This document shows positions 22,290 to 33,373 of a stretch of 34,459 bases of DNA, one piece after another. Under the pieces are notes generated by a model that saw only the letters and a list, made by a program, of their open reading frames with translations, was not told the origin of the DNA and did no database searches. The stretch is taken from positions 1-34,459 of the forward strand of contig CACAKI010000007.1 in NCBI GenBank assembly GCA_902533035.1. The letters are read 5' to 3'. A program made the position numbers and the translations under genes. Position 1 is the first letter of the stretch. Each line of letters opens with the position of its first letter. This DNA comes from an uncultured Bacteroidota bacterium. Lineage in GTDB: Bacteria > Bacteroidota > Bacteroidia > Flavobacteriales > TMED113.

Positions 22290-22325
22290 ATAATATCTAA
22301 GTTTATTTTAATAAATTTATAGAAC

Positions 22326-24537
22326 ATGAAACAATGGATAATTATTCTTTTTTGCGTTCCTTTTGTATTATTATCTCAGGAACATCTAAAAGGAAAAATT
22401 TTAGATGAAAATAACCCTTTAATTGGAGCAAATGTTCAATGGATTAACACTAATATTGGAACTACCAGTGATTCAAATGGTAATTTTAGTATAAGCAAAA
22501 AAAAATATTAGTGATAAAAGGTTAATAATTAGTTTTATAGGATTTCAAACTGACACCATTCCTATTCAAGAAACTATCAATAATATAATTATAACATTAA
22601 AAACGACCAATAATTTAAATACTATTGATTTAAAAGAAAATAAGGACGGCATCTATATAGATAAGAAAAACCCTATCAAAATTGAAATTATAACGCAAGA
22701 AGAACTAACCAAAGCAGCATGTTGTGATTTAGCTGGATGTTTTGAAACACAAATTAGTGTAGAACCTAAAACAACAAATATTATCACAAACACTAAAGAA
22801 ATCAGCATACTTGGTTTGTCTGGGGTTTACAACCAATTACTTTTAGATGGAATACCCATTATAAATGGCTTAAATTATACATATGGAATTAGTGCTATAC
22901 CAGGAACATTAATTGATAATATTTTTATATCTCAAGGACTAGCATCAACCATTCAAGGTCATGAAAGTATAACAGGACAGATAAACATCGAGTTAAAAGA
23001 AAAAAGCGAAGAAGAAAAAATATTTCTTAATCTTTACATGAATAGTTTTTTGTCAAAACAAGCTAATATTGATTATAATTTCAATCTTGGAAATTGGAAA
23101 TCAATTATTTCATTACATAGCACTCAACCAGGAAAAAAAATAGACAACAATAGTGATACTTTTTTAGATTTACCTTTAACAACAAAATATTCACTATATA
23201 ATAAATGGGTTTATGGATTACAAAATAATTCTGGTTTATACTCTAAAATCACCTTACGTTATTTAAACGAAAAACGATTAGGAGGGCAAATAAATTATAC
23301 TGAAAACAAACAAGGAAGTAATGAAGTGTACGGGCAAATTATTAATTTTTCTCAGCCAGAACTACATATTCATTCATCATATAAGTTTAATAAAAGGGAA
23401 TCGGTTATTTTAAGATCTGCATTAACTTATCATGAACAAGAATCTTTTTTCGGAACCACACAATATTTAGCAAATCAATTAAATTATTATCTTAATTTTT
23501 CATATAAGTTAAATTGGAATACACATGAATTTCACTCTGGTTTAAATTTTAAAAAATTAGATTTAAATGAGACTATTAATTTAAATGACAATTTCAACAG
23601 AACATTTGGTGGTGAGTATAATAAAAATGAAAATATAGCTGGAGTTTTTATAGAAAATACATTTAATTGGAATAATAAAAATCTACAATTAATTAGTGGA
23701 GTTCGAGTCGATAAACATAATGATTATGGCTTATTTTTTACACCTAGATGTTTAATAAAGTATAATTTTAGTGAAAATACTATAATGAGGGCGAGCTTTG
23801 GAACAGGTTGGAAAACAATAAACCTTTTTAGCGAAAACATAAAATTATTTGGTACTAATAAAGACATTATAATTTCTGATAATTTAGAACCTGAACACGG
23901 ATTAAATTATGGATTGAACATACTACATGCTATATATCTAGAAAACATTGAGTTACAATTTATTTTTGATGCATATAAAACTAATTTCTTAAATCAAATA
24001 CACCCTGATTATCATACAAATTTAAATAATATATATATTCATAATTTAGAAGGAAAAAGTATAAGTAATTCATTACAAGGTGAGTTCGCTATTGAGTTAT
24101 ATGAATCGTTAGGAATAAAATTAGCATATAATTATTTAGATGTTTTTCATATAGAAAATGGACATAAACATAGACTTCCTTTTAATTCAAAACATCATAT
24201 TTTGAGTACTCTTTCTTACAAACCAATTGAAGGAAATTGGCATTTTGATTGTAATTTACATTGGTTTGGAAAAAAGAAATTAATTAACACATCTCAAAAC
24301 CCAGAACCTTTTAGACGTAATAACACATCTGAGCCCTATTCAACATTTGGAGCACAATTCACAAAAAAATTAAACAATATGGATTTATATATTGGCGCAG
24401 AAAACTTATTCAATTTCAAACAAGAAAACCCTATTATAAGCTGGGAAGATCCATTTGGAGAATATTTTAATATTGCTAACGTTTGGGGCCCAACTAAAGG
24501 CAGAGAAGTGTATATCGGATTAAGATATAGATTGTAA
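22326..24537 (+). pseudogene. TonB-dependent receptor (ACC-motif subfamily), frameshifted at A9 (22497..22505)
   Basis: 22326..22511 encodes signal plus carboxypeptidase-regulatory domain start; downstream frame continues ISDKRLIISFIGFQTDTIPIQE...ELTKAACCDLAGCFETQISVEPKTT...LGLSGVYNQLLLDGIPIINGLNYTYGISAIPGTLIDNIFISQGLASTIQGHESITGQINIELKEK, then barrel. Removing one A restores a single ORF. Confidence 0.85.
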
Positions 24538-24538
24538 A

Positions 24539-25576
24539 TCAAAATATTTTAAAAGATTTTTGCACACTCCCATCATCATAAATAAATAATAGAGGGATCA
24601 AAGAATTAGGTGACAATTCCCTACCTAAAACATCTATAATTTTTATAATTTTCTTTTCTGAAATTTGCATATCCTCTAATGAACTAGAACTACAATCAAT
24701 TAAACCATTTATATCATGTTTGGAAACAAAATTCCATATTTCTTCATCTGAGTCAATATCCATATTTCCAAAAACACCAGGCCAATCATGACCACCGCCA
24801 TTAACTTTAAGTTCTTCCACAGAAACACAATTAGTCCCATTAGCCCAAGTTTTTCTTTCAACAGTACTTCCGTCAGAAGTATTAAAATTAGGTATATCAA
24901 TAATAATAGGATCAGAATCTGTATTATTAAAACTAGCCCAATAAGCATGCATATCATCAGCTGAGACATAATATAACTCACCATTCCAAGACAAACCTTC
25001 ATATGGAGAAACAAAGTCATCTGTACCTAATATTGTCATTAAAGCTGTTGGATGTTCTAGATTACAATTATTATATTGAAATGACTGCATAGTTCTTGCC
25101 ACTGCCGCACCAGCTGCAATTCTAAAATTTAATCTACATAAAACTTCATATGTAAATTCTCCTCCCAAAGAATAACCACATGCATAAACTCTAGATTGAT
25201 CAATCATATATTGCGAAGCTAATTCATCAATAATTGATTCAATAAAATAAATATCATCATGATCAGTGGGATCTTTATGAATCCAATTCAAAGAACCTCC
25301 ATCATTAGGGTCAGCTAAAGCTTGAGGGAACACTAGTATAAATCCTTCTAAATCTGCAACAGAAGTCATGTTTGAACCTAAAATCCAATCTGACGCATAA
25401 CCATTTCCCCCATGAAAATTAAACATTAATGGAACCTCCTCATTTTCCTGATAACTTTCAGGTATATAAAGAATATACTCCCTTGTTTCACCATCATAAA
25501 CTATTGTTTCTGTTATTTGTTGTTGAGAAAAGCCTATAGTCATTAAAAAGAAAAAAAAGAAGGAAAATTTGTGCAT
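24539..25576 (-). CDS. Secreted alpha/beta-hydrolase esterase (PHB depolymerase/LpqC-like) with short C-terminal tag
   Basis: REYILYIPESYQENEEVPLMFNFHGGNGYASDW; YACGYSLGGEFTYEVLC (GxSxG); GGGHDWPG; C-terminal KKIIKIIDVLGRELSPNSLIPLLFIYDDGSVQKSFKIF. Confidence 0.9.
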   Translation of the reverse strand: MHKFSFFFFFLMTIGFSQQQITETIVYDGETREYILYIPESYQENEEVPLMFNFHGGNGYASDWILGSNMTSVADLEGFILVFPQALADPNDGGSLNWIHKDPTDHDDIYFIESIIDELASQYMIDQSRVYACGYSLGGEFTYEVLCRLNFRIAAGAAVARTMQSFQYNNCNLEHPTALMTILGTDDFVSPYEGLSWNGELYYVSADDMHAYWASFNNTDSDPIIIDIPNFNTSDGSTVERKTWANGTNCVSVEELKVNGGGHDWPGVFGNMDIDSDEEIWNFVSKHDINGLIDCSSSSLEDMQISEKKIIKIIDVLGRELSPNSLIPLLFIYDDGSVQKSFKIF

Positions 25577-25584
25577 TTTTATTA

Positions 25585-26013
25585 TTATTTAACGATTATT
25601 TTCGAAGATAAGAATTTAGATTTCAGATTTTCACTAGGAAGCATACAACTTTTTTGCTTACCAAAAATATTATATCTTATTTTAGCAATCATCGTATAAA
25701 AAAAATCTCTTATCGGATACGGTATTATATAAAAAATAAATAAAACCTTCCAAAATGTATTTAAATAACGAAGAGCTGTTAAAACAGCTGATGATTTAAA
25801 TTTTATTTTTTTATTTTTTATTAAAATAATGGAATCAATTTTTTTAATATCAATAGAAAAATTCTTAATTATTTCTTGCCCTTCAGGACTTTGAATCGCT
25901 GCTAATCTAAAAACATCATTAGAGTCATTTTTTATAATAAATTTCACAGATTTAATACACAAATTACAAACCCCATCAAAAAGAATAATAATTTTATCGT
26001 TAATTGACTCCAT
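25585..26013 (-). CDS. DCC family thiol-disulfide oxidoreductase (DUF393)
   Basis: IILFDGVCNLCIKSVKFIIKNDSNDVFRLAAIQSPEGQEI: DxxCxxC DUF393 signature. Confidence 0.94.
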   Translation of the reverse strand: MESINDKIIILFDGVCNLCIKSVKFIIKNDSNDVFRLAAIQSPEGQEIIKNFSIDIKKIDSIILIKNKKIKFKSSAVLTALRYLNTFWKVLFIFYIIPYPIRDFFYTMIAKIRYNIFGKQKSCMLPSENLKSKFLSSKIIVK

Positions 26014-26020
26014 AATGAAT

Positions 26021-28453
26021 TTAAAATTTATACTGCATCGTAATAAAAAAATTTCTATTTGGAGAAGGAATAATTCCAGGTCCAGGATAACCAGTTGCCC
26101 GATTAGTAAAATAATGTTTATCTAACAAATTATTGACCCCAAATTCAAATTCGAAGTTATTTATAAAATAGGAAAAAGATAAATCTAAGACATCATATTT
26201 TGGTAGAGAGCCTATCACACCACTCAGATCACTTTCAATAGAGTTAGTAGCATCTGTAAATTGCTTAGACATAAAAGTATATTGCAGACTAGATTTAAAG
26301 TTCTTAAATTTGAAATCCAACCCTGTTTTACAATTTAATTTTGGAACAAACTCAACTTGATTTCCCTCAACACCATTTAATTCAGAACTAACATAGTTAG
26401 AATTTATGTTAGAAAAATTCAAAAAATAATTTATTCCCAAATCTTTAGAATCAAACAATAAATTAGAAATATTAAAATTGATTAAAAACTCTTGTCCATA
26501 TAAAAGAGCATCTCCCACATTACCTTTTTCATTTTTAACACTTCCGTCAAAAAAAGGACGTTGAACAAATCCAATTCTATCACTATAAAAAAGATAAAAA
26601 GTACTAAAATCATAAAATATAAAATTTTTATAACTCCCTCTAAAGCCTAAATCTATAGTATACCCACTTTCATCACTAATGTTGGGGTTAATAATAAAAC
26701 TAGGACTAACAATATTAATATCCGAAAAAGTAACTGCTCTATAATTTCTAGAATAATTTGAGTAAAATTCGGAAAAACTTGAAAACTTAAAACTGTAGCC
26801 TAACCCATATAATAATAAACTTCGTTTTCTTACATCGTTAGTGACAATTAAATCATTTAGTATAACATTTCCTGCCGCATCTGTATTTATATCTCTATAA
26901 TGCCCATCAGAAGCAGTTTGAATATATTCAAATCTAAAACCTGGAACAATTGACATCTTATCATTTAAATAAAAAATATTTTCATTAAATATTGAGTAAT
27001 TTAAATTTGGATTTGAATAATTTGATTGATTTTCATAATTAGGAAAAAGTGTTGATTGAAAATTAAAATTTGCATCTGAAGCAGAAGACCCAGGACCTTG
27101 TTTAATGGAATTAGACCCAGAATATAATTTAAATCCTAATAAAGAAATTAGTTTTTTATTTAAAAATTTAGATTGGTGAAATAATTTTGTTTCTAAACCA
27201 AAGTTATTAAAATCAGATTTAATGAGATCTCTTTCCTCAAAAGAGTCAACTTGGTCTACCCTATTTGACCTAAATCCAACTGCGTATCTATGAGCATCTA
27301 AAATAAAAGTGCTAATAGACCAATTTGTCTTATCTGAAAGGTTATAGGAAAATTTAAAATTATATAGAAGCCAATTTACCTCAAACCAATTTCTTTCTCT
27401 ATTACTTTGAAATATATTATCATAAAACATAGCATCTGTTAAACCCCCAGGTTGTTGAGCTAAATAATTTAAATAAGAAACTTCAAATGAAAAATTTATT
27501 TTATCAGACAAATCATACTTGAAAAAAGAAAAAAGATTATATGATTTAAAATCAGAATTTGGCCTAAAACCATCTCCTTTTTTATAATTAAAAAAAGTAT
27601 AGTAACCAAGTTTATCTAAAGTGCCGGATAGGCTAGTGAAATTTGAATAAAAATTATTTGAGCCTAATGTATTTCTAGCAAGAATCTCTAAAGATTTATT
27701 TCTAATTGGTTTTTTAATATTAAAATTAATTAGCCCCCCAAACTGAGTTCCATATTGAAGTGAGCCTGCTCCCCTAATCAGTTGAATGTTTTCCAAAGAT
27801 TCAAATGGTGGTGAATAGTAGCTCTCTGGATAACCTAAAGGGTCTGCGCTAATTTCATAACCATTTTGGCGAACATTAAAATTTGAACTTCTTCTAGGGT
27901 CCAGCCCCCTACCACCAATATTTAATTGCAATCCAGCATCATCAGTTTGATAAATATTAAGACTAGTAGTCTGATTGTACATTTGACGGGCATTATTAAT
28001 AGAAGTTCCTGATTTTTTTTCTGACAAAATCAACTCACTTTTTTTTCCAGAATATATTGAGTTTGATTCAATGTCATCTAAATAATCTGTTCCAAAATCA
28101 CTGTATTCTTCATCGTAAAGAATCACTTCATCCAAATTTGTATTAACTGCTGATAATAAAACATTTAATTCAATTTTACTTTGATTATCAAAAATAATTT
28201 CTTTCACTAATGAATTATAGCCTTCTTTGATAAAATATAGTTCTAATGTGTCTAAAAAAGTATTATAATTATAAAAACCCAAAGAATCTGAAATAGTTAA
28301 AAAATTATTTTTTGCATCAAAAAGCTTAACATTATTTAAATGGTTCCCTGAAATACTATCTTTTGTAAAACCAGATAATACATTCTGTGCTTTAGAAGAA
28401 AAAAACACAAAAAATAAACACATAAAATATTTAAAACCCTTTAATTTCATCAT
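26021..28453 (-). CDS. TonB-dependent receptor (siderophore/FecA-like)
   Basis: Carboxypeptidase-regulatory domain; plug LQLNIGGRGLDPRRSSNFNVRQNGYEISADPLGYPESYYSPPFESLENIQLIRGAGSLQYGTQFGGLINF; C-terminal FGVNNLLDKHYFTNRATGYPGPGIIPSPNRNFFITMQYKF. Confidence 0.95.
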   Translation of the reverse strand: MMKLKGFKYFMCLFFVFFSSKAQNVLSGFTKDSISGNHLNNVKLFDAKNNFLTISDSLGFYNYNTFLDTLELYFIKEGYNSLVKEIIFDNQSKIELNVLLSAVNTNLDEVILYDEEYSDFGTDYLDDIESNSIYSGKKSELILSEKKSGTSINNARQMYNQTTSLNIYQTDDAGLQLNIGGRGLDPRRSSNFNVRQNGYEISADPLGYPESYYSPPFESLENIQLIRGAGSLQYGTQFGGLINFNIKKPIRNKSLEILARNTLGSNNFYSNFTSLSGTLDKLGYYTFFNYKKGDGFRPNSDFKSYNLFSFFKYDLSDKINFSFEVSYLNYLAQQPGGLTDAMFYDNIFQSNRERNWFEVNWLLYNFKFSYNLSDKTNWSISTFILDAHRYAVGFRSNRVDQVDSFEERDLIKSDFNNFGLETKLFHQSKFLNKKLISLLGFKLYSGSNSIKQGPGSSASDANFNFQSTLFPNYENQSNYSNPNLNYSIFNENIFYLNDKMSIVPGFRFEYIQTASDGHYRDINTDAAGNVILNDLIVTNDVRKRSLLLYGLGYSFKFSSFSEFYSNYSRNYRAVTFSDINIVSPSFIINPNISDESGYTIDLGFRGSYKNFIFYDFSTFYLFYSDRIGFVQRPFFDGSVKNEKGNVGDALLYGQEFLINFNISNLLFDSKDLGINYFLNFSNINSNYVSSELNGVEGNQVEFVPKLNCKTGLDFKFKNFKSSLQYTFMSKQFTDATNSIESDLSGVIGSLPKYDVLDLSFSYFINNFEFEFGVNNLLDKHYFTNRATGYPGPGIIPSPNRNFFITMQYKF

Positions 28454-29798
28454 TTAGAGGTAATATCCATTTTTTATGTCGGAAAGACTGTTTTTCCGAA
28501 TACAAATTAACAGAATCATTAATAAATCTTTGACTTTTTCTTCCATTCAAAGCAACAAAACTATCTACAAAAACCTGAATTTCTCCATTTTCCCCAAACC
28601 ATAAATACTGGTCTCCCAAATAATGAGCATATTCTAAAATCATATCTGGCTGAAAACTCATCTGCTTTTCTTGAAAATCAGTTAAAAAATCACTATTCAA
28701 AACTGTAATTGATTTATTATTCTTAGTATTAAGAATTTTAAAATTAGTTTCCGCTGTTTTCTCTACCAACATAACTCTCCAAGAAAATCTATAACCTTGT
28801 TCATTCCAAAATAATTCTCCAGGATATAACAGATATCTAAAAGGAAAGGTAATTTGAAAAAGAAAAAAAGCAGATACAATAAATAAAATAGGCTTTTCAT
28901 AGGAAGCCCTAAAAGAATCGTGATGTTTTAATTTTATCGAAAAAGAAAATATTTTTTGAAAAAACTTCTTAATCCAAGAAATAATTTTATTATGAAAATT
29001 AGCTGAAAAAAAGATTAGTGAACTAAATATCATAATATATGGAAACATACCTATTGGAAATAAAATTTTAGTTAAAGAATGAAAAATTACAACTAATAGA
29101 AAAGCAAACAACCTTGTTCTAGAATTGAGTAGCAAAAAAGGAATCAATAAATCATAAACCATACCAGACCAACTCATAAAATAATGAATCCATTTTTTTT
29201 GAAACAAATCACCTAATAAGGGCAGGTCATAATTAGAAGTTAGCCAAATCTTTAACGGCATTGCTTTGAATAACCAATCGGAATTCATTTTGGCTATAGC
29301 AGCATATATAAAAACAATACTAATTAATAACTTAATACTATCAATAGTCCATTTTGGTATTTTTTGATAAGTCTTTTTATTTATGATATTATCAATTGAG
29401 AAAGAAGCATTAGCAGGTAAAAAAATCATTAAAAAACTTAAAACAGAAACAAAATAATAATGATTTAAATAAGTAGTTTTATCCATTAATTCTATATATG
29501 TAAAGCTTAAAAAAAATATAATTATAGAAATTCGGTATTTTAAGCCTAGACAAATAAAAACAGATGAAATAAAACAAATAAAAAATAACAAATAAGTAAA
29601 ATCCCCTAATGGCTTTACCCACTCAAAACCATAATAAGAAAAATGAAAACTTGGGTCAATATATAATTCTTTAATCCAGCCTTTAGACCAAAATCTTATT
29701 ATACTCACAGACATTAAAAATCCAAAGAAAAACCTAAATACAGATAGTGGAGAAGATGGAACTTCTTTTTGAATATATAATTTAGGATTAAAAATCAT
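28431..29798 (-). CDS. HTTM domain (vitamin K-dependent gamma-carboxylase-like) membrane protein
   Basis: SPLSVFRFFFGFLMSVSIIRFWSKGWIKELYIDPSFHFSYYGFEWVKPLGDFTYLLFFICFISSVFICLGLKYRISIIIFFLSFTYIELMDKTTYLNHYYFVSVLSFLMIFLPANASFSID: HTTM-type TM domain. Confidence 0.9.
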   Translation of the reverse strand: MIFNPKLYIQKEVPSSPLSVFRFFFGFLMSVSIIRFWSKGWIKELYIDPSFHFSYYGFEWVKPLGDFTYLLFFICFISSVFICLGLKYRISIIIFFLSFTYIELMDKTTYLNHYYFVSVLSFLMIFLPANASFSIDNIINKKTYQKIPKWTIDSIKLLISIVFIYAAIAKMNSDWLFKAMPLKIWLTSNYDLPLLGDLFQKKWIHYFMSWSGMVYDLLIPFLLLNSRTRLFAFLLVVIFHSLTKILFPIGMFPYIMIFSSLIFFSANFHNKIISWIKKFFQKIFSFSIKLKHHDSFRASYEKPILFIVSAFFLFQITFPFRYLLYPGELFWNEQGYRFSWRVMLVEKTAETNFKILNTKNNKSITVLNSDFLTDFQEKQMSFQPDMILEYAHYLGDQYLWFGENGEIQVFVDSFVALNGRKSQRFINDSVNLYSEKQSFRHKKWILPLNDEIKGF

Positions 29799-29801
29799 AA
29801 T

Positions 29802-30927
29802 TTAATCCCCATCTGCATCTACATAATCTACTGAAATACCTAAAGCTTGTAACATATCAACTTTAAAAGAAACAACTAATAGTTGAATGGCATCATATGT
29901 TAATAACATTTCAGTATTATTAAATTCAATTTGAGAAACAAAATTATTATCTAATTGATTTAATTGATTTTCAGCATTTTTCAAATTGATTATTGATAAC
30001 TGAAGAAATATTATCACTTCCAGGATATAAAAAATCTAAATAGTTTTCTAAACTTAAACCAACAATACTACTTGTGATTTCTTGATCATAACTAAAATGT
30101 TTTCCAACAAAAAAATTCTTTGATGCTCTCAGGGCTTGAATTGCTAATTCTTTGGAAACATCTTTTTTGTAATAGGCCTCAACAGTATGAGGTAAAGGGT
30201 CTGAAGAAAAAATCCCTGCAGGGATTCCTATTTTATTAGCTCTTAAACCTTTTTCAAAATAATATATAAAATCATTTGTCATTTTATTAACAGATGAAGT
30301 TGCAGTATTAGAACTAAGGGTAATAAATTCATCTCTATATGAATTCCAATCTTCAATAATTAAATTAGTATTAGAAAGCATATTACTCACTAAATCAGAT
30401 AAATATAGGGAGTAGGAAGAATTTGTATTATAAATATTTAAAATACCATCTGTGGTTTCTGCTAAACCATGAAGCATATAATCAATTGCAGGAAAACCTC
30501 TAGAATCAAAATTATTATTATTATTTAAATCATAATTACCATTGATTATATTTTGATTAATTAACTCAGAATCAGTAGGGTAAATATTCATCTTTCCTTT
30601 ATAATTTATAACTTCTGCTAAACCTATATCAAACATTTCAATATGCTGCCAATATTTATAGGAATTAAGCCATGCTTCTGAGATTTCTTGTAACAAATTA
30701 TCACTAGGATTAGAAACAAAATTATTAACAGCATCATCTAAAGAATTAAGACTAACATAGAAATCATTATATGCAGGAATGATAATGTTATCAGCCCAAT
30801 TAATCAACATAGATTTTCTATCAAAACCATCTCCATTATCATTATCATTATTATCATTCTCATCTGTTTCACAAGAAAGTAAAAGAAAAAAGAAAAGAAA
30901 GAAGTAAGAGTAATTTCTGAGTAACAT
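29802..30927 (-). pseudogene. Imelysin family (peptidase M75-like) lipoprotein, frameshifted near the 3' end at 29977..29981
   Basis: Lipobox LLLSCETD; NWADNIIIPAYNDFYVSLNSLDDAV...GFPAIDYMLHGL...LRANKIGIPAG. Frame breaks at NNQFE; 29802..30017 continues NAENQLNQLDNNFVSQIEFNNTEMLLTYDAIQLLVVSFKVDMLQALGISVDYVDADGD. ATG 30927 chosen. Confidence 0.87.
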
Positions 30928-30946
30928 AATAAAAGTTTTAAAAAAG

Positions 30947-31008
30947 TTAACCAATCTAAAAAAGAATAAAAAATTCCCTTTATATGTACTCTTTTTTAGA
31001 TTGGCTAA
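30947..31008. promoter_or_regulatory. Long inverted repeat between DUF4856 and imelysin genes (intercistronic stem-loop)
   Basis: CCAATCTAAAAAAGA (30951..30965) and TCTTTTTTAGATTGG (30990..31004): perfect 15-bp inverted repeat, extendable by TTA/TAA across one mismatch; followed on the transcribed strand by a U-rich stretch. Confidence 0.8.
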
Positions 31009-31022
31009 ACTTTAAATAGATA

Positions 31023-32174
31023 TTATAAACCTGCAGCAGATTGAATCTGAGAAGCCATTTCATTCAAATCATCAGCTGATATATCCCAAAAACCATTTCC
31101 TGCCATCATTTGATCAAGCATTGTGTTTACTTCAGCATTTGAAAAATAACTTGTAAACTGTAAACTTAAAACAAAACCATAACCCTCAGACAAACCATGA
31201 AAAGTATCTTCTCTAGGAGCTCCGGACTCAATTGTTTCAGCACCACCTAAAAGATAATCCACTGCTTTTTGAGCAATAATTTTATCTACATGTTCTTTTA
31301 TAATTAATGCTTGATTATCTCTAAGATTATAATCTCCAGCAACAATAGCAGCTCTACCTAATTTAAAGGCATCATAAATAACATTTGCAATACCAGGGTG
31401 AGAACCTTCATCTACTTTCTTTAAGTATTTGTTTAGCAGAACACCTTTTCCTTCAGCAGGTCCAATAGCATTATTGTCAGTACCACCAACATGTTCATTA
31501 TTATATCCATATAAATAACCATATCCCTCATCCCAGTAATGTTCCATATCAGTATACTCTCCAGCACCTAATCCATTAGTATCATTGGTTGTTCCATCAC
31601 CATCTAATTTAGAAGGAGTTAAATAGTTATTAGTCATTTGATCTGCAACCATTGCACCAATTAAACCTTTAATGAAAGCTTGATCAATTTCAAGACCTTT
31701 CCCATCAACTTGATAAGTAGACCCACTACTGGTTGTAATTTGACCAGCCATACCCATTGAAGCAGAACTAGTCCAATTAGGATAAACTTCATCAACTAAG
31801 ACAGTAAACATATCTTCAAATTGAGATTTTACAGTAGATGATGCTGTTGGAGAAGCAGCTGTTTTCCCACCAACATTTTTACCACATGTGTAAGCAAAAT
31901 CAAAACCTGTTCCTTCATTGAACATTGTTAAAAATTCACTTACAGTCGCAGCATTTTCACTGTTCATCGCATCATAAATATCCTTAGCCATTTGCACTCT
32001 ACATGTTTGGCCAGAAAAAGAAACTGTAGAAGCCCCATCTCTTTCAAAAGTATAAGTTGCTGGAGCAACAACTGTATCGTGGTCATGATCATGATCATGA
32101 TCATCATCTTTTTCACATGAGTTAAAAAAAAATGGTGACATTAATAAAAGTGATAAATAAAATATATTTTTCAT
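31023..32174 (-). CDS. DUF4856 domain lipoprotein with His/Asp-rich N-terminus
   Basis: Lipobox FFFNSCEK then DDDHDHDHDHD; ATYTFERDGASTVSFSGQTCRVQMAKDIYDAMN...FAYTCGKNVGGKTAASPT...GKGLEIDQAFIKGLIGAMVADQMTNNYL...DMEHYWDEGYGYLYG...REDTFHGLSEGYGFVLSLQFTS typical of DUF4856. Confidence 0.93.
   Translation of the reverse strand: MKNIFYLSLLLMSPFFFNSCEKDDDHDHDHDHDTVVAPATYTFERDGASTVSFSGQTCRVQMAKDIYDAMNSENAATVSEFLTMFNEGTGFDFAYTCGKNVGGKTAASPTASSTVKSQFEDMFTVLVDEVYPNWTSSASMGMAGQITTSSGSTYQVDGKGLEIDQAFIKGLIGAMVADQMTNNYLTPSKLDGDGTTNDTNGLGAGEYTDMEHYWDEGYGYLYGYNNEHVGGTDNNAIGPAEGKGVLLNKYLKKVDEGSHPGIANVIYDAFKLGRAAIVAGDYNLRDNQALIIKEHVDKIIAQKAVDYLLGGAETIESGAPREDTFHGLSEGYGFVLSLQFTSYFSNAEVNTMLDQMMAGNGFWDISADDLNEMASQIQSAAGL
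32083..32104. repeat. TCATGA hexamer microrepeat encoding the HDHDHD tract
   Basis: TCATGATCATGATCATGATCAT in the N-terminal coding region of the DUF4856 gene. Confidence 0.9.
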
Positions 32175-32203
32175 GTTTTTAAAATATTAATTAATAATTT
32201 ACT

Positions 32204-32253
32204 ATTTAGAATGATTCAAAATTAATAAATTATTATTTAGAATCAATATAAAT
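32204..32253 (-). promoter_or_regulatory. Bacteroidota-type promoter overlapped by two 19-bp inverted repeats (putative Fur-like operators)
   Basis: ATTTAGAATGATTCAAAAT (32204..32222) and ATTTAGAATCAATATAAAT (32235..32253), 31-bp period. On the minus strand TTG (32244..32246) - 19 nt - TAATTTTG (32217..32224) matches TTG-N19-TAnnTTTG. Confidence 0.72.
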
Positions 32254-32283
32254 AATAAAAGTATTTTAAAAATTCTTTGTTTA

Positions 32284-33246
32284 TTACTTTATAATCATTG
32301 ATTTTGAAACCGTTCCGTCATTATAAATAATAAAAAATGGGAGATTATATATGGGATCAAAAATAGATCGACCTAAAATATCTTTCATTAAAATAACCTT
32401 TTTAGAATTTTGATTTACTAAAATATAAGTATTGCAACCTGAGTTCCAATAAGGATTCCAAAGACTTCCCAACCAATATTCATCACTAGAATCATTCCCA
32501 ACCCATATACCTAAACATTCTGACTGATTAATATAAGAAACCGAATTAGTTCCTAAATCATAGCAATAAGGCACTTGACAATCTCCACAATCATCAATTA
32601 AACCGCATGTCCCATTATCTATCGTTGCATCAGGATTATAATTACAAGCCACCTCATCAGTACAACCAAACACCTCTTCAACAGGCTCACTAACTCCCTG
32701 ACAAGAACATTCACATATATCGCTAATCAACATACCCAAATCGATCATTGGGAGACCATCCCAATTACAAGCCTGATATTCAGAATAATCATAACTTGTT
32801 ATCAAAAAATCTATCAAAGAAGAACAATCATTGATAAAAAAATCCCCAAAATTAGCCTCTATAAATGAATCATCATCTTCACAGCCTTGCTCATTAACAG
32901 TAATCGACCCAACCATCCCCATAGAAGCATGCTGCCCCACAGAACAGTCATAATTATAAAAACCTGGAACATTAAATGTATGTGTGTAAATTTCACCACC
33001 AACTGTATTCATAGCGTCAGAATCAAAAGCTTCAGGATTATTAAATGACTCACCAGTAATAGTATTAATATCTCCATTCACATCATGAAACCCACCATCA
33101 TTTATCCAAACAACAATATCTCCCTGATTAATAGTTAAATCAGAAGGAGAATAATAAAAACTACCCGCATTTACATAATGAGTTTCTTGAGAAAAAGAAA
33201 CGCCAAAAATGAAAGAAAATAAAAAAAAGAAAGTAAAATTTTTCAT
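32284..33246 (-). CDS. Secreted cupredoxin (plastocyanin-like) protein with GCTDxxACNYNP repeat and short C-terminal tag
   Basis: THYVNAGSFYYSPSDLTINQGDIVVWINDGGFHDVN...YTHTFNVPGFYNYDCSVGQHASMGMVGSITV (His, Cys, His, Met copper ligands); FGCTDEVACNYNPDATIDNGTC; C-terminal KKVILMKDILGRSIFDPIYNLPFFIIYNDGTVSKSMIIK. Confidence 0.92.
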   Translation of the reverse strand: MKNFTFFFLFSFIFGVSFSQETHYVNAGSFYYSPSDLTINQGDIVVWINDGGFHDVNGDINTITGESFNNPEAFDSDAMNTVGGEIYTHTFNVPGFYNYDCSVGQHASMGMVGSITVNEQGCEDDDSFIEANFGDFFINDCSSLIDFLITSYDYSEYQACNWDGLPMIDLGMLISDICECSCQGVSEPVEEVFGCTDEVACNYNPDATIDNGTCGLIDDCGDCQVPYCYDLGTNSVSYINQSECLGIWVGNDSSDEYWLGSLWNPYWNSGCNTYILVNQNSKKVILMKDILGRSIFDPIYNLPFFIIYNDGTVSKSMIIK

Positions 33247-33300
33247 AAAATAACTTATTTATTGATTAATAAAAACTGTGGCAATATTAGTTATTTTTTT

Positions 33301-33319
33301 ATTTAGAACAAATCTAAAT
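33301..33319 (-). promoter_or_regulatory. 19-bp inverted repeat overlapping a TAnnTTTG -7 element (putative operator)
   Basis: ATTTAGAACAAATCTAAAT; minus strand carries TAGATTTG (33309..33316). Same half-site and spacing as the repeats at 32204 and 32235. No clear -33 TTG at the expected spacing. Confidence 0.6.
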
Positions 33320-33373
33320 AATGAAAATTTTTAAGATTTTTTTTTAGAAAATTATAAAGTGCTTAAAAGTCAG

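What the first reader, a model, noticed from the sequence alone, without database searches (positions are those of the whole stretch)
24539..32174. Candidate metal-acquisition operon combining an HTTM (gamma-carboxylase-like) protein, DCC oxidoreductase, imelysin, DUF4856, TBDT and esterase
Seen: six minus-strand genes in tight succession. HTTM and TBDT overlap, TBDT to DCC is 7 nt, DCC to esterase is 8 nt, imelysin to HTTM is 3 nt. The first gene encodes a lipoprotein starting CEKDDDHDHDHDHD, a likely metal-binding stub. Established: imelysins are tied to iron uptake (M75/EfeO-related), TBDTs import iron or metal complexes, and HTTM is homologous to the vitamin K-dependent gamma-carboxylase membrane domain. 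DCC/DUF393 proteins carry a thioredoxin-like CxxC. I recall that DUF4856, imelysin, HTTM and TBDT genes recur together in marine Bacteroidota, but cannot verify this here. Inference: this is a coherent surface iron/metal capture system in which the HTTM and DCC proteins perform an uncharacterised quinone- or thiol-linked redox or modification step in the inner membrane.
Basis: partly seen in the sequence, partly recalled or inferred. Interest (0 to 1): 0.8.

Follow-up and report, generated by a model that had tools for sequence, protein, structure and literature searches.

The report
Iron operon with vitamin-K-carboxylase relative
Marine bacteria of the phylum Bacteroidota carry a conserved set of genes, preceded by what looks like an iron-sensing DNA site, that pairs an apparently intact relative of the human vitamin-K blood-clotting enzyme with an iron-linked protein that always ends in the same three amino acids; this suggests that the enzyme modifies that protein and gives bacterial relatives of the clotting enzyme a testable job.

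Summary
Four of the six genes, DUF4856 lipoprotein – imelysin – HTTM – TonB-dependent receptor (TBDT), form a core found in this order in 77 of the 80 nearest relatives and across the phylum. DCC is largely a local addition; the esterase is not conserved.

The HTTM protein is a homologue of human GGCX (phmmer 7e-45; fold match 1e-22, TM 0.83). All 105 operon copies keep K218, H160, N159 and core quinone-pocket residues. GGCX's C-terminal propeptide-binding part is missing, and no VKOR was found in HTTM-bearing relatives.

A 23-bp palindrome (TTATTTAGAnTnAnTCTAAATAA) lies upstream in 104 of 110 operons, and also before IrpA imelysin clusters and siderophore-type TBDTs. And 106 of 108 HTTM-linked imelysins end exactly in Asp-Gly-Asp. 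This tail was found only in genomes with the enzyme (46 of 46), including one without DUF4856 or operon TBDT, and on a plasmid with a different operon.

Best reading: an iron-capture system in which a menaquinol-dependent carboxylase modifies the imelysin, probably at that tail. The chemistry is untested.

The parts
31023..32174 (-). DUF4856 lipoprotein (core gene 1), 383 aa; CEKDDD at the lipobox fits a surface-export signal
   Evidence: PF16148 1.6e-87; AF2 pLDDT 88, all-helical, no significant PDB fold match; invariant K169, H326, E330 among 46 homologues
29802..30927 (-). Imelysin (M75-like) lipoprotein (core gene 2), GxHxxE replaced by GFPAID; frame change near 29971-29981; downstream frame ends ...ISVDYVDADGD 3 nt before HTTM
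   Evidence: PF09375 1.3e-19; the two frames read separately; tail 74-86% identical to intact relatives
29805..29813 (-). Codons of the conserved C-terminal Asp-Gly-Asp of the imelysin
   Evidence: 106 of 108 HTTM-linked imelysins end exactly in DGD
28431..29798 (-). HTTM protein (core gene 3): inner-membrane homologue of vitamin K-dependent gamma-carboxylase, TM domain plus lumenal domain
   Evidence: PF05090 4.8e-77, PF22777 2.3e-54; human GGCX phmmer 7e-45; fold E 1e-22, TM 0.83; K218/H160/N159 equivalents invariant
26021..28453 (-). TonB-dependent receptor (core gene 4), overlaps HTTM by 23 nt
   Evidence: Plug domain; best NCBIfam hits FecA 4.6e-30 and TonB-siderophor 1.7e-27, both below cut-off; overlap common in relatives
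25585..26013 (-). DCC1-like thiol-disulfide protein (GVCNLC), accessory gene
   Evidence: PF04134 4.6e-27; beside TBDT only in the window's family and 2 of 78 others
24539..25576 (-). PHB-depolymerase-like esterase; not part of the conserved system
32284..33246 (-). Cupredoxin (plastocyanin-like) secreted protein, upstream neighbour with its own palindrome; associated gene in this lineage
   Evidence: PF00127 2.8e-11; same position in L005, L006, L008; box upstream
32233..32255 (-). Predicted operator, 23-bp palindrome upstream of DUF4856
   Evidence: PWM 24.7 bits; class found in 104 of 110 operons
32202..32224 (-). Second, weaker predicted operator copy upstream of DUF4856
   Evidence: PWM 18.0 bits
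33299..33321 (-). Predicted operator upstream of the cupredoxin gene
   Evidence: PWM 28.0 bits

Best explanation
This is an iron-acquisition operon whose functional pair is a vitamin-K-type carboxylase and a tagged imelysin. Proposed working: when iron is short, a metal regulator releases the 23-bp palindromes and the operon is expressed. The imelysin lipoprotein crosses the inner membrane. The HTTM/VKGC enzyme, with its active site facing the periplasm, uses menaquinol (vitamin K2, the respiratory quinone of these bacteria), O2 and CO2 to modify it. The site is most likely the free C-terminal Asp-Gly-Asp tail, or a residue presented by docking of that tail; the product would be a malonate-type side chain that binds Fe(III). 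Together with the lipoprotein DUF4856, predicted to be surface-exposed, the modified imelysin captures iron and passes it to the TBDT.

Shown by computation: conservation of the operon, GGCX homology with intact catalytic and quinone-pocket residues, the shared operator, the invariant DGD tail and its restriction to enzyme-bearing genomes. Inferred: activity, substrate, product, the metal bound, surface location and the order of events.
For: GGCX homology: PF05090 and PF22777; phmmer 7e-45 over residues 15-449; model pLDDT 89 matching GGCX structures, E 1e-22, TM 0.83. Human N159, H160, K218, W223, G259, F286, F294, F299, W399 and M402 kept in 105 of 105 operon copies; roles of most of these residues from PMC12589487.

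Operon. Operator: 104 of 110 operons, 0.05 sites per shuffled locus, also before IrpA clusters, periplasmic binding proteins, PepSY and a TBDT that passes the siderophore-receptor cut-off.

Tail: 106 of 108. In the 248-genome sample, 46 genomes with a match running through the tail all have VKGC; 8 with imelysin matches that stop before it have none. In one family of 92 genomes, DGD imelysins occur only among the 36 enzyme-bearing ones.

Separation cases: G142 has an enzyme of the operon clade and an unlinked DGD imelysin but no DUF4856 or operon-type TBDT. Persicobacter plasmid pPP1 has IrpA-DHOR-imelysin(DGD)-HTTM with two operators and no DUF4856 or operon TBDT beside it. DUF4856 loci without the enzyme (L116-L118) have no DGD imelysin.
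Against: No biochemical or expression data. Human GGCX acts on Glu beside a propeptide; the tail offers Asp, and the propeptide-binding part is mostly missing. VKOR, which recycles the quinone epoxide in animals, was not found in any HTTM-bearing relative examined. Most enzyme-tail associations are within one operon and related genomes are not independent; only a few cases are unlinked. The tail could serve docking, export or metal binding without being modified. Non-operon HTTM paralogues keep the same catalytic residues, so catalytic conservation does not by itself point to the imelysin.
Confidence: 0.45

Rival explanations
1. The operon is an iron-uptake system and the VKGC enzyme is active, but its substrate is another operon product (DUF4856 or TBDT) or a small molecule; the DGD tail has an unrelated structural or docking role.
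For: DUF4856 co-occurs with VKGC in 34 of 37 genomes; DUF4856 has invariant H326/E330/K169; HTTM and TBDT genes overlap.
Against: G142 and the Persicobacter plasmid keep the enzyme and the DGD imelysin without DUF4856 or operon TBDT.
Confidence: 0.25
2. The HTTM protein is a menaquinol-linked redox protein (for example helping ferric reduction or quinone oxygenation), not a protein carboxylase; it has the GGCX fold and quinone site but not its protein substrate.
For: Most of the propeptide-binding part and VKOR are missing; human R436 and K217 are replaced by Q and A. From memory, not read here: a Leptospira homologue was reported with altered activity suggesting a role other than protein carboxylation.
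Against: The Glu-pocket residues N159 and H160 are invariant and Y395 is Y or F; the tail association suggests a protein partner.
Confidence: 0.2
3. Ordinary iron-uptake operon: the HTTM protein is kept for membrane or assembly reasons and the DGD tail is a structural or metal-binding end of one imelysin subfamily that happens to be inherited with it.
For: The tail marks imelysin subfamilies that are mostly inherited with the operon.
Against: The DGD end persists when preceding residues diverge, e.g. NIQDADGKNDGD and ITYSSGDGD; separate architectures keep the pair; strict conservation of catalytic residues.
Confidence: 0.1

Closest known systems
Human vitamin K-dependent gamma-carboxylase (GGCX)
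   Same: Same fold of TM and lumenal domain, catalytic Lys218, His160, Asn159 and naphthoquinone pocket
   Different: Ends at about human residue 506: later propeptide-binding and arch regions absent; K217, M401, R436 changed; no VKOR in HTTM-bearing relatives; the partner carries a C-terminal tail and no known N-terminal propeptide
Imelysin family (M75): IrpA, ICMP, LruB, EfeO
   Same: Pfam M75 match; lipoprotein; linked to iron genes; same type of operator upstream of IrpA clusters
   Different: GxHxxE is GFPA(I/V/L)D; invariant C-terminal DGD, absent from the 12 IrpA/LruB-type imelysins examined
Leptospira LruB-di-haem-imelysin operon (PMC7567364, PMC13066512)
   Same: Same architecture as the IrpA-DHOR-imelysin clusters in L203-L205 and L220; reported as induced by iron limitation
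   Different: Not examined here for a DGD tail or an HTTM gene; no DUF4856-TBDT arrangement described
EfeUOB iron uptake system
   Same: EfeO joins a cupredoxin and an M75 domain (general knowledge); here a cupredoxin gene and an imelysin gene lie close together
   Different: No EfeU or EfeB among the window's genes; TBDT, DUF4856 and VKGC take their place
FecA/siderophore TonB-dependent receptors
   Same: Best family scores for the TBDT
   Different: Far below curated cut-offs; ligand unknown

Membership tests
Vitamin K-dependent gamma-carboxylase (GGCX) family | HTTM transmembrane domain plus lumenal domain in one chain | tested here: met
   PF05090 4.8e-77 and PF22777 2.3e-54, both over cut-off
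Vitamin K-dependent gamma-carboxylase (GGCX) family | Same three-dimensional fold | tested here: met
   AF2 model against GGCX cryo-EM structures: E 1e-22, TM 0.83 over the query
Vitamin K-dependent gamma-carboxylase (GGCX) family | Catalytic base Lys218, His160/Asn159 Glu pocket, naphthoquinone pocket | tested here: met
   105 of 105 operon copies; residue roles from PMC12589487
Vitamin K-dependent gamma-carboxylase (GGCX) family | Complete propeptide-binding domain and arch-like region (animal enzyme) | tested here: not met
   Homology ends at about human residue 506. This argues against an animal-type GGCX, not against membership of the wider family
Vitamin K-dependent gamma-carboxylase (GGCX) family | VKOR partner for quinone recycling (animal pathway) | tested here: not met
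   PF07884 in none of the HTTM-bearing genomes of 40 relatives
Vitamin K-dependent gamma-carboxylase (GGCX) family | Carboxylation of Glu in a protein substrate | not testable with these tools
   Needs mass spectrometry or an assay
Imelysin family (M75) | M75 domain | tested here: met
   PF09375 1.3e-19
Imelysin family (M75) | GxHxxE motif | tested here: not met
   GFPAID in the window, GFPAVD/GFPGID in relatives; a GxxxxE variant member is described in PMC3143127
EfeUOB iron system | EfeU permease and EfeB peroxidase beside EfeO | tested here: not met
   Not among the window's annotated genes
Iron-responsive (Fur-type or other) regulon | Conserved palindromic operator shared with iron genes | tested here: met
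   104 of 110 operons plus IrpA, binding-protein, PepSY and TBDT genes
Iron-responsive (Fur-type or other) regulon | Binding by an identified regulator and response to iron | not testable with these tools
   Regulator not identified; no expression data
FecA ferric dicitrate receptor | Score over the curated cut-off | tested here: not met
   104 bits against 1100

The most novel reading that the evidence does not exclude
A bacterial protein-carboxylation system for iron: a menaquinol-dependent GGCX homologue recognises and carboxylates the C-terminal Asp-Gly-Asp tail of an imelysin (giving beta-carboxyaspartate or a related malonate-type ligand). The vitamin K-dependent carboxylation of animals would then be one branch of a wider chemistry used for metal capture, aimed in bacteria by a C-terminal tag and in animals by a propeptide.
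Probability: 0.3. Interest if true: 0.95.

Novelty: new variant of a known kind. Interest (0 to 1): 0.75.

Why it matters
The role of bacterial GGCX/HTTM homologues is an open question, and the held open-access library has no paper that links them to imelysin or DUF4856. Here a widespread, apparently iron-regulated operon gives one a defined partner with a short invariant tail, so a single mass-spectrometry comparison can test protein carboxylation in bacteria. If true, it would place vitamin-K chemistry in marine iron nutrition and bear on the origin of the clotting enzyme's reaction.

Tried and rejected
DUF4856 as a hidden imelysin: its HxxSEGxGF-like motifs suggested it, but the confident AF2 model has no significant PDB fold match. 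Other DGD-tailed substrates: DxDGD-stop patterns outside imelysins are not clearly enriched in enzyme-bearing genomes (about 13 hits in some 47 genomes against about 7 in some 33), so the tail looks imelysin-specific. VKOR as recycling partner: absent. DCC as a general VKOR substitute: rejected, because most operons lack it nearby. HDHDHD stub as metal site: not conserved. Esterase as member: rejected. Literature for DUF4856, imelysin with HTTM, and HTTM domain: no link found. The Leptospira carboxylase paper and an early Leptospira iron paper are not held. MliR in Bizionia argentinensis activates an imelysin-like gene and a siderophore TBDT (PMC9478572), but these could not be mapped to this operon. 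Only two structure predictions were allowed, so the imelysin tail was not modelled.
Full report
Where it is. The window is contig C7 of a 1.02-Mb, 83%-complete assembly; named relatives are mostly marine Flavobacteriales and Flavobacteriaceae. On the minus strand lie, in order of transcription, cupredoxin, DUF4856, imelysin, HTTM, TBDT, DCC and esterase.

The observation. The imelysin frame stops at 29971, 172 nt before HTTM. A second frame, 29802-29975, encodes 57 residues that match the C-termini of intact imelysins of close relatives at 74-86% and ends 3 nt before HTTM. A plus-strand TBDT at about 22325-24537 is also broken at an A run, so sequencing error is likely for both.

Conserved neighbourhood. 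Of 554 HTTM relatives the best 80 were fetched. DUF4856, imelysin, HTTM and TBDT stand in this order in 77, one of them with a 3-kb gap inside; the rest are two short contigs missing an end gene and one locus without a DUF4856 hit. Because those loci were chosen by HTTM similarity, a second sample was drawn evenly over the phylum: of 37 genomes with DUF4856, 34 have a VKGC lumenal domain within about 3.5 kb on the same strand. Distant families have a very divergent DUF4856-like gene in the same place. HTTM and TBDT often overlap by 20 or 23 nt. DCC is next to TBDT in the window's family and rarely elsewhere; the esterase is not conserved.

The enzyme. phmmer aligns residues 15-449 with human GGCX at 7e-45. 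AF2 gives pLDDT 89, and Foldseek finds GGCX structures at E 1e-22 and TM 0.83. In 105 operon copies N159, H160, K218, W223, G259, F286, H287, F294, F299, W399 and M402 (human numbers) are invariant, and Y395 is Y or F. PMC12589487 assigns K218 to deprotonation of vitamin K hydroquinone, N159/H160/Y395 to the Glu side chain, and F286/F294/F299 with others to the quinone pocket. Changed are K217 to A, M401 to V and R436 to Q. The protein stops near human residue 506, so the later propeptide-binding and arch regions are absent. HTTM proteins outside the operon fall outside the operon clade, except G142's copy, which is inside it. VKOR occurs in 4 of 40 relatives, none with HTTM. That these bacteria use menaquinone is general knowledge, not tested here.

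The operator. Upstream regions of the first gene share TTATTTAGAnTnAnTCTAAATAA, found in 104 of 110, with matching changes in both halves in distant taxa (TTATTTGGAC...GTCCAAATAA). Shuffled loci give 0.05 sites each. The window has it at 32233-32255 and 32202-32224 before DUF4856, and at 33299-33321 before the cupredoxin. In the fetched loci it also precedes IrpA/LruB-type imelysin clusters, three periplasmic binding proteins of the SBP_bac_8 type whose N-termini resemble Fe(III)-binding proteins (by eye; NCBIfam gives only weak hits to other substrates), a PepSY membrane protein and a TBDT that passes the siderophore-receptor cut-off. I read it as an iron box; the regulator is unknown. The IrpA-DHOR-imelysin cluster matches the Leptospira LruB-di-haem-imelysin operon, reported as induced by iron limitation (PMC7567364, PMC13066512).

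The tail. Of 108 imelysins beside HTTM, 106 end exactly in Asp-Gly-Asp; the exceptions are L065 (DGDND) and the frameshifted window copy. Twelve IrpA/LruB-type imelysins do not. Of the proteins best matched by a profile of the DHOR-linked third imelysin, 9 end in DGD, all from enzyme-bearing genomes or loci, and 8 do not, all from genomes without VKGC. In 248 genomes, 46 have an imelysin that matches a DGD-tailed query to its last residue, and all 46 are in the VKGC list; 8 have imelysins whose match stops before the tail, and none has VKGC (lists compared by eye). In a family of 92 genomes, 36 have an operon-type enzyme and DGD imelysins occur only among them. Three whose tails had not aligned also end in DGD, after a changed stretch (NIQDADGKNDGD). 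G289, without the enzyme, has IrpA-DHOR without a DGD imelysin.

Separation cases. Because most of this association is within one operon, unlinked cases carry the weight. G142 has an operon-clade enzyme alone and a DGD imelysin 1.7 Mb away in an IrpA-DHOR cluster; it has no DUF4856 and no TBDT of the operon type (best 32% over part, against 77-100% in sister genomes). Persicobacter psychrovividus plasmid pPP1 has IrpA-DHOR-imelysin(DGD)-HTTM with two operators and no DUF4856 or operon TBDT beside it; its HTTM groups with the operon clade at modest support (0.71) and has the clade's residues T290, Y395, V401 and Q436. Three DUF4856 loci without the enzyme have no DGD protein. The constant pair is enzyme plus DGD imelysin.

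Mechanism. A GGCX-type active site needs a reduced vitamin K, O2, CO2 and a side chain with an acidic C-H next to a carboxylate. The candidate is the imelysin tail, which is at the very C-terminus and acidic, in a lipoprotein that passes the periplasmic face of the inner membrane. Carboxylation would give a malonate-type ligand suited to hard ions such as Fe(III). DUF4856 has CEKDDD at its lipobox, which fits the surface-export signal C-X-K-(D/E)2-X (PMC5080379), so the last steps may be at the cell surface beside the TBDT. Activity, substrate and product are inference. The tail might only dock the imelysin, and Asp is not the usual GGCX substrate.

Verdict. The parts are known families, the combination appears undescribed in the library searched, and one simple experiment would decide it.

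Noticed in passing
window 22325-24537 (+): A second TonB-dependent receptor is split by a frame change at an A run near 22500; together with the imelysin this suggests homopolymer errors in the assembly.
   Followed up: partly
L002 (G000:C24:8653-9393): A second, divergent HTTM gene in the same genome, next to a peptidase-like gene and without the operon; similar single copies occur in family relatives.
   Followed up: partly
L096-L102, L119: Another HTTM paralogue sits between a riboflavin kinase/FAD synthetase (ribF) gene and seryl-tRNA synthetase in several genomes (checked by Pfam in L096, by gene lengths in the others); it keeps the catalytic residues but has no DGD imelysin beside it.
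   Followed up: partly
L135:7563-10368: Tandem duplication of DUF4856 upstream of imelysin.
   Followed up: no
L013, L014, L223-L225: DCC genes also lie next to some non-operon HTTM genes, or on the opposite strand before the operon, hinting at an older HTTM-DCC link.
   Followed up: no
L018:1856-2749, L082:13818-14741: A DUF6607 protein (and a look-alike in L082) with a neighbouring TBDT gene has the 23-bp palindrome upstream, so DUF6607 may belong to the same regulon.
   Followed up: partly
window 32284-33246: Cupredoxin gene with its own palindrome beside the imelysin operon; EfeO joins the same two domains in one protein.
   Followed up: partly
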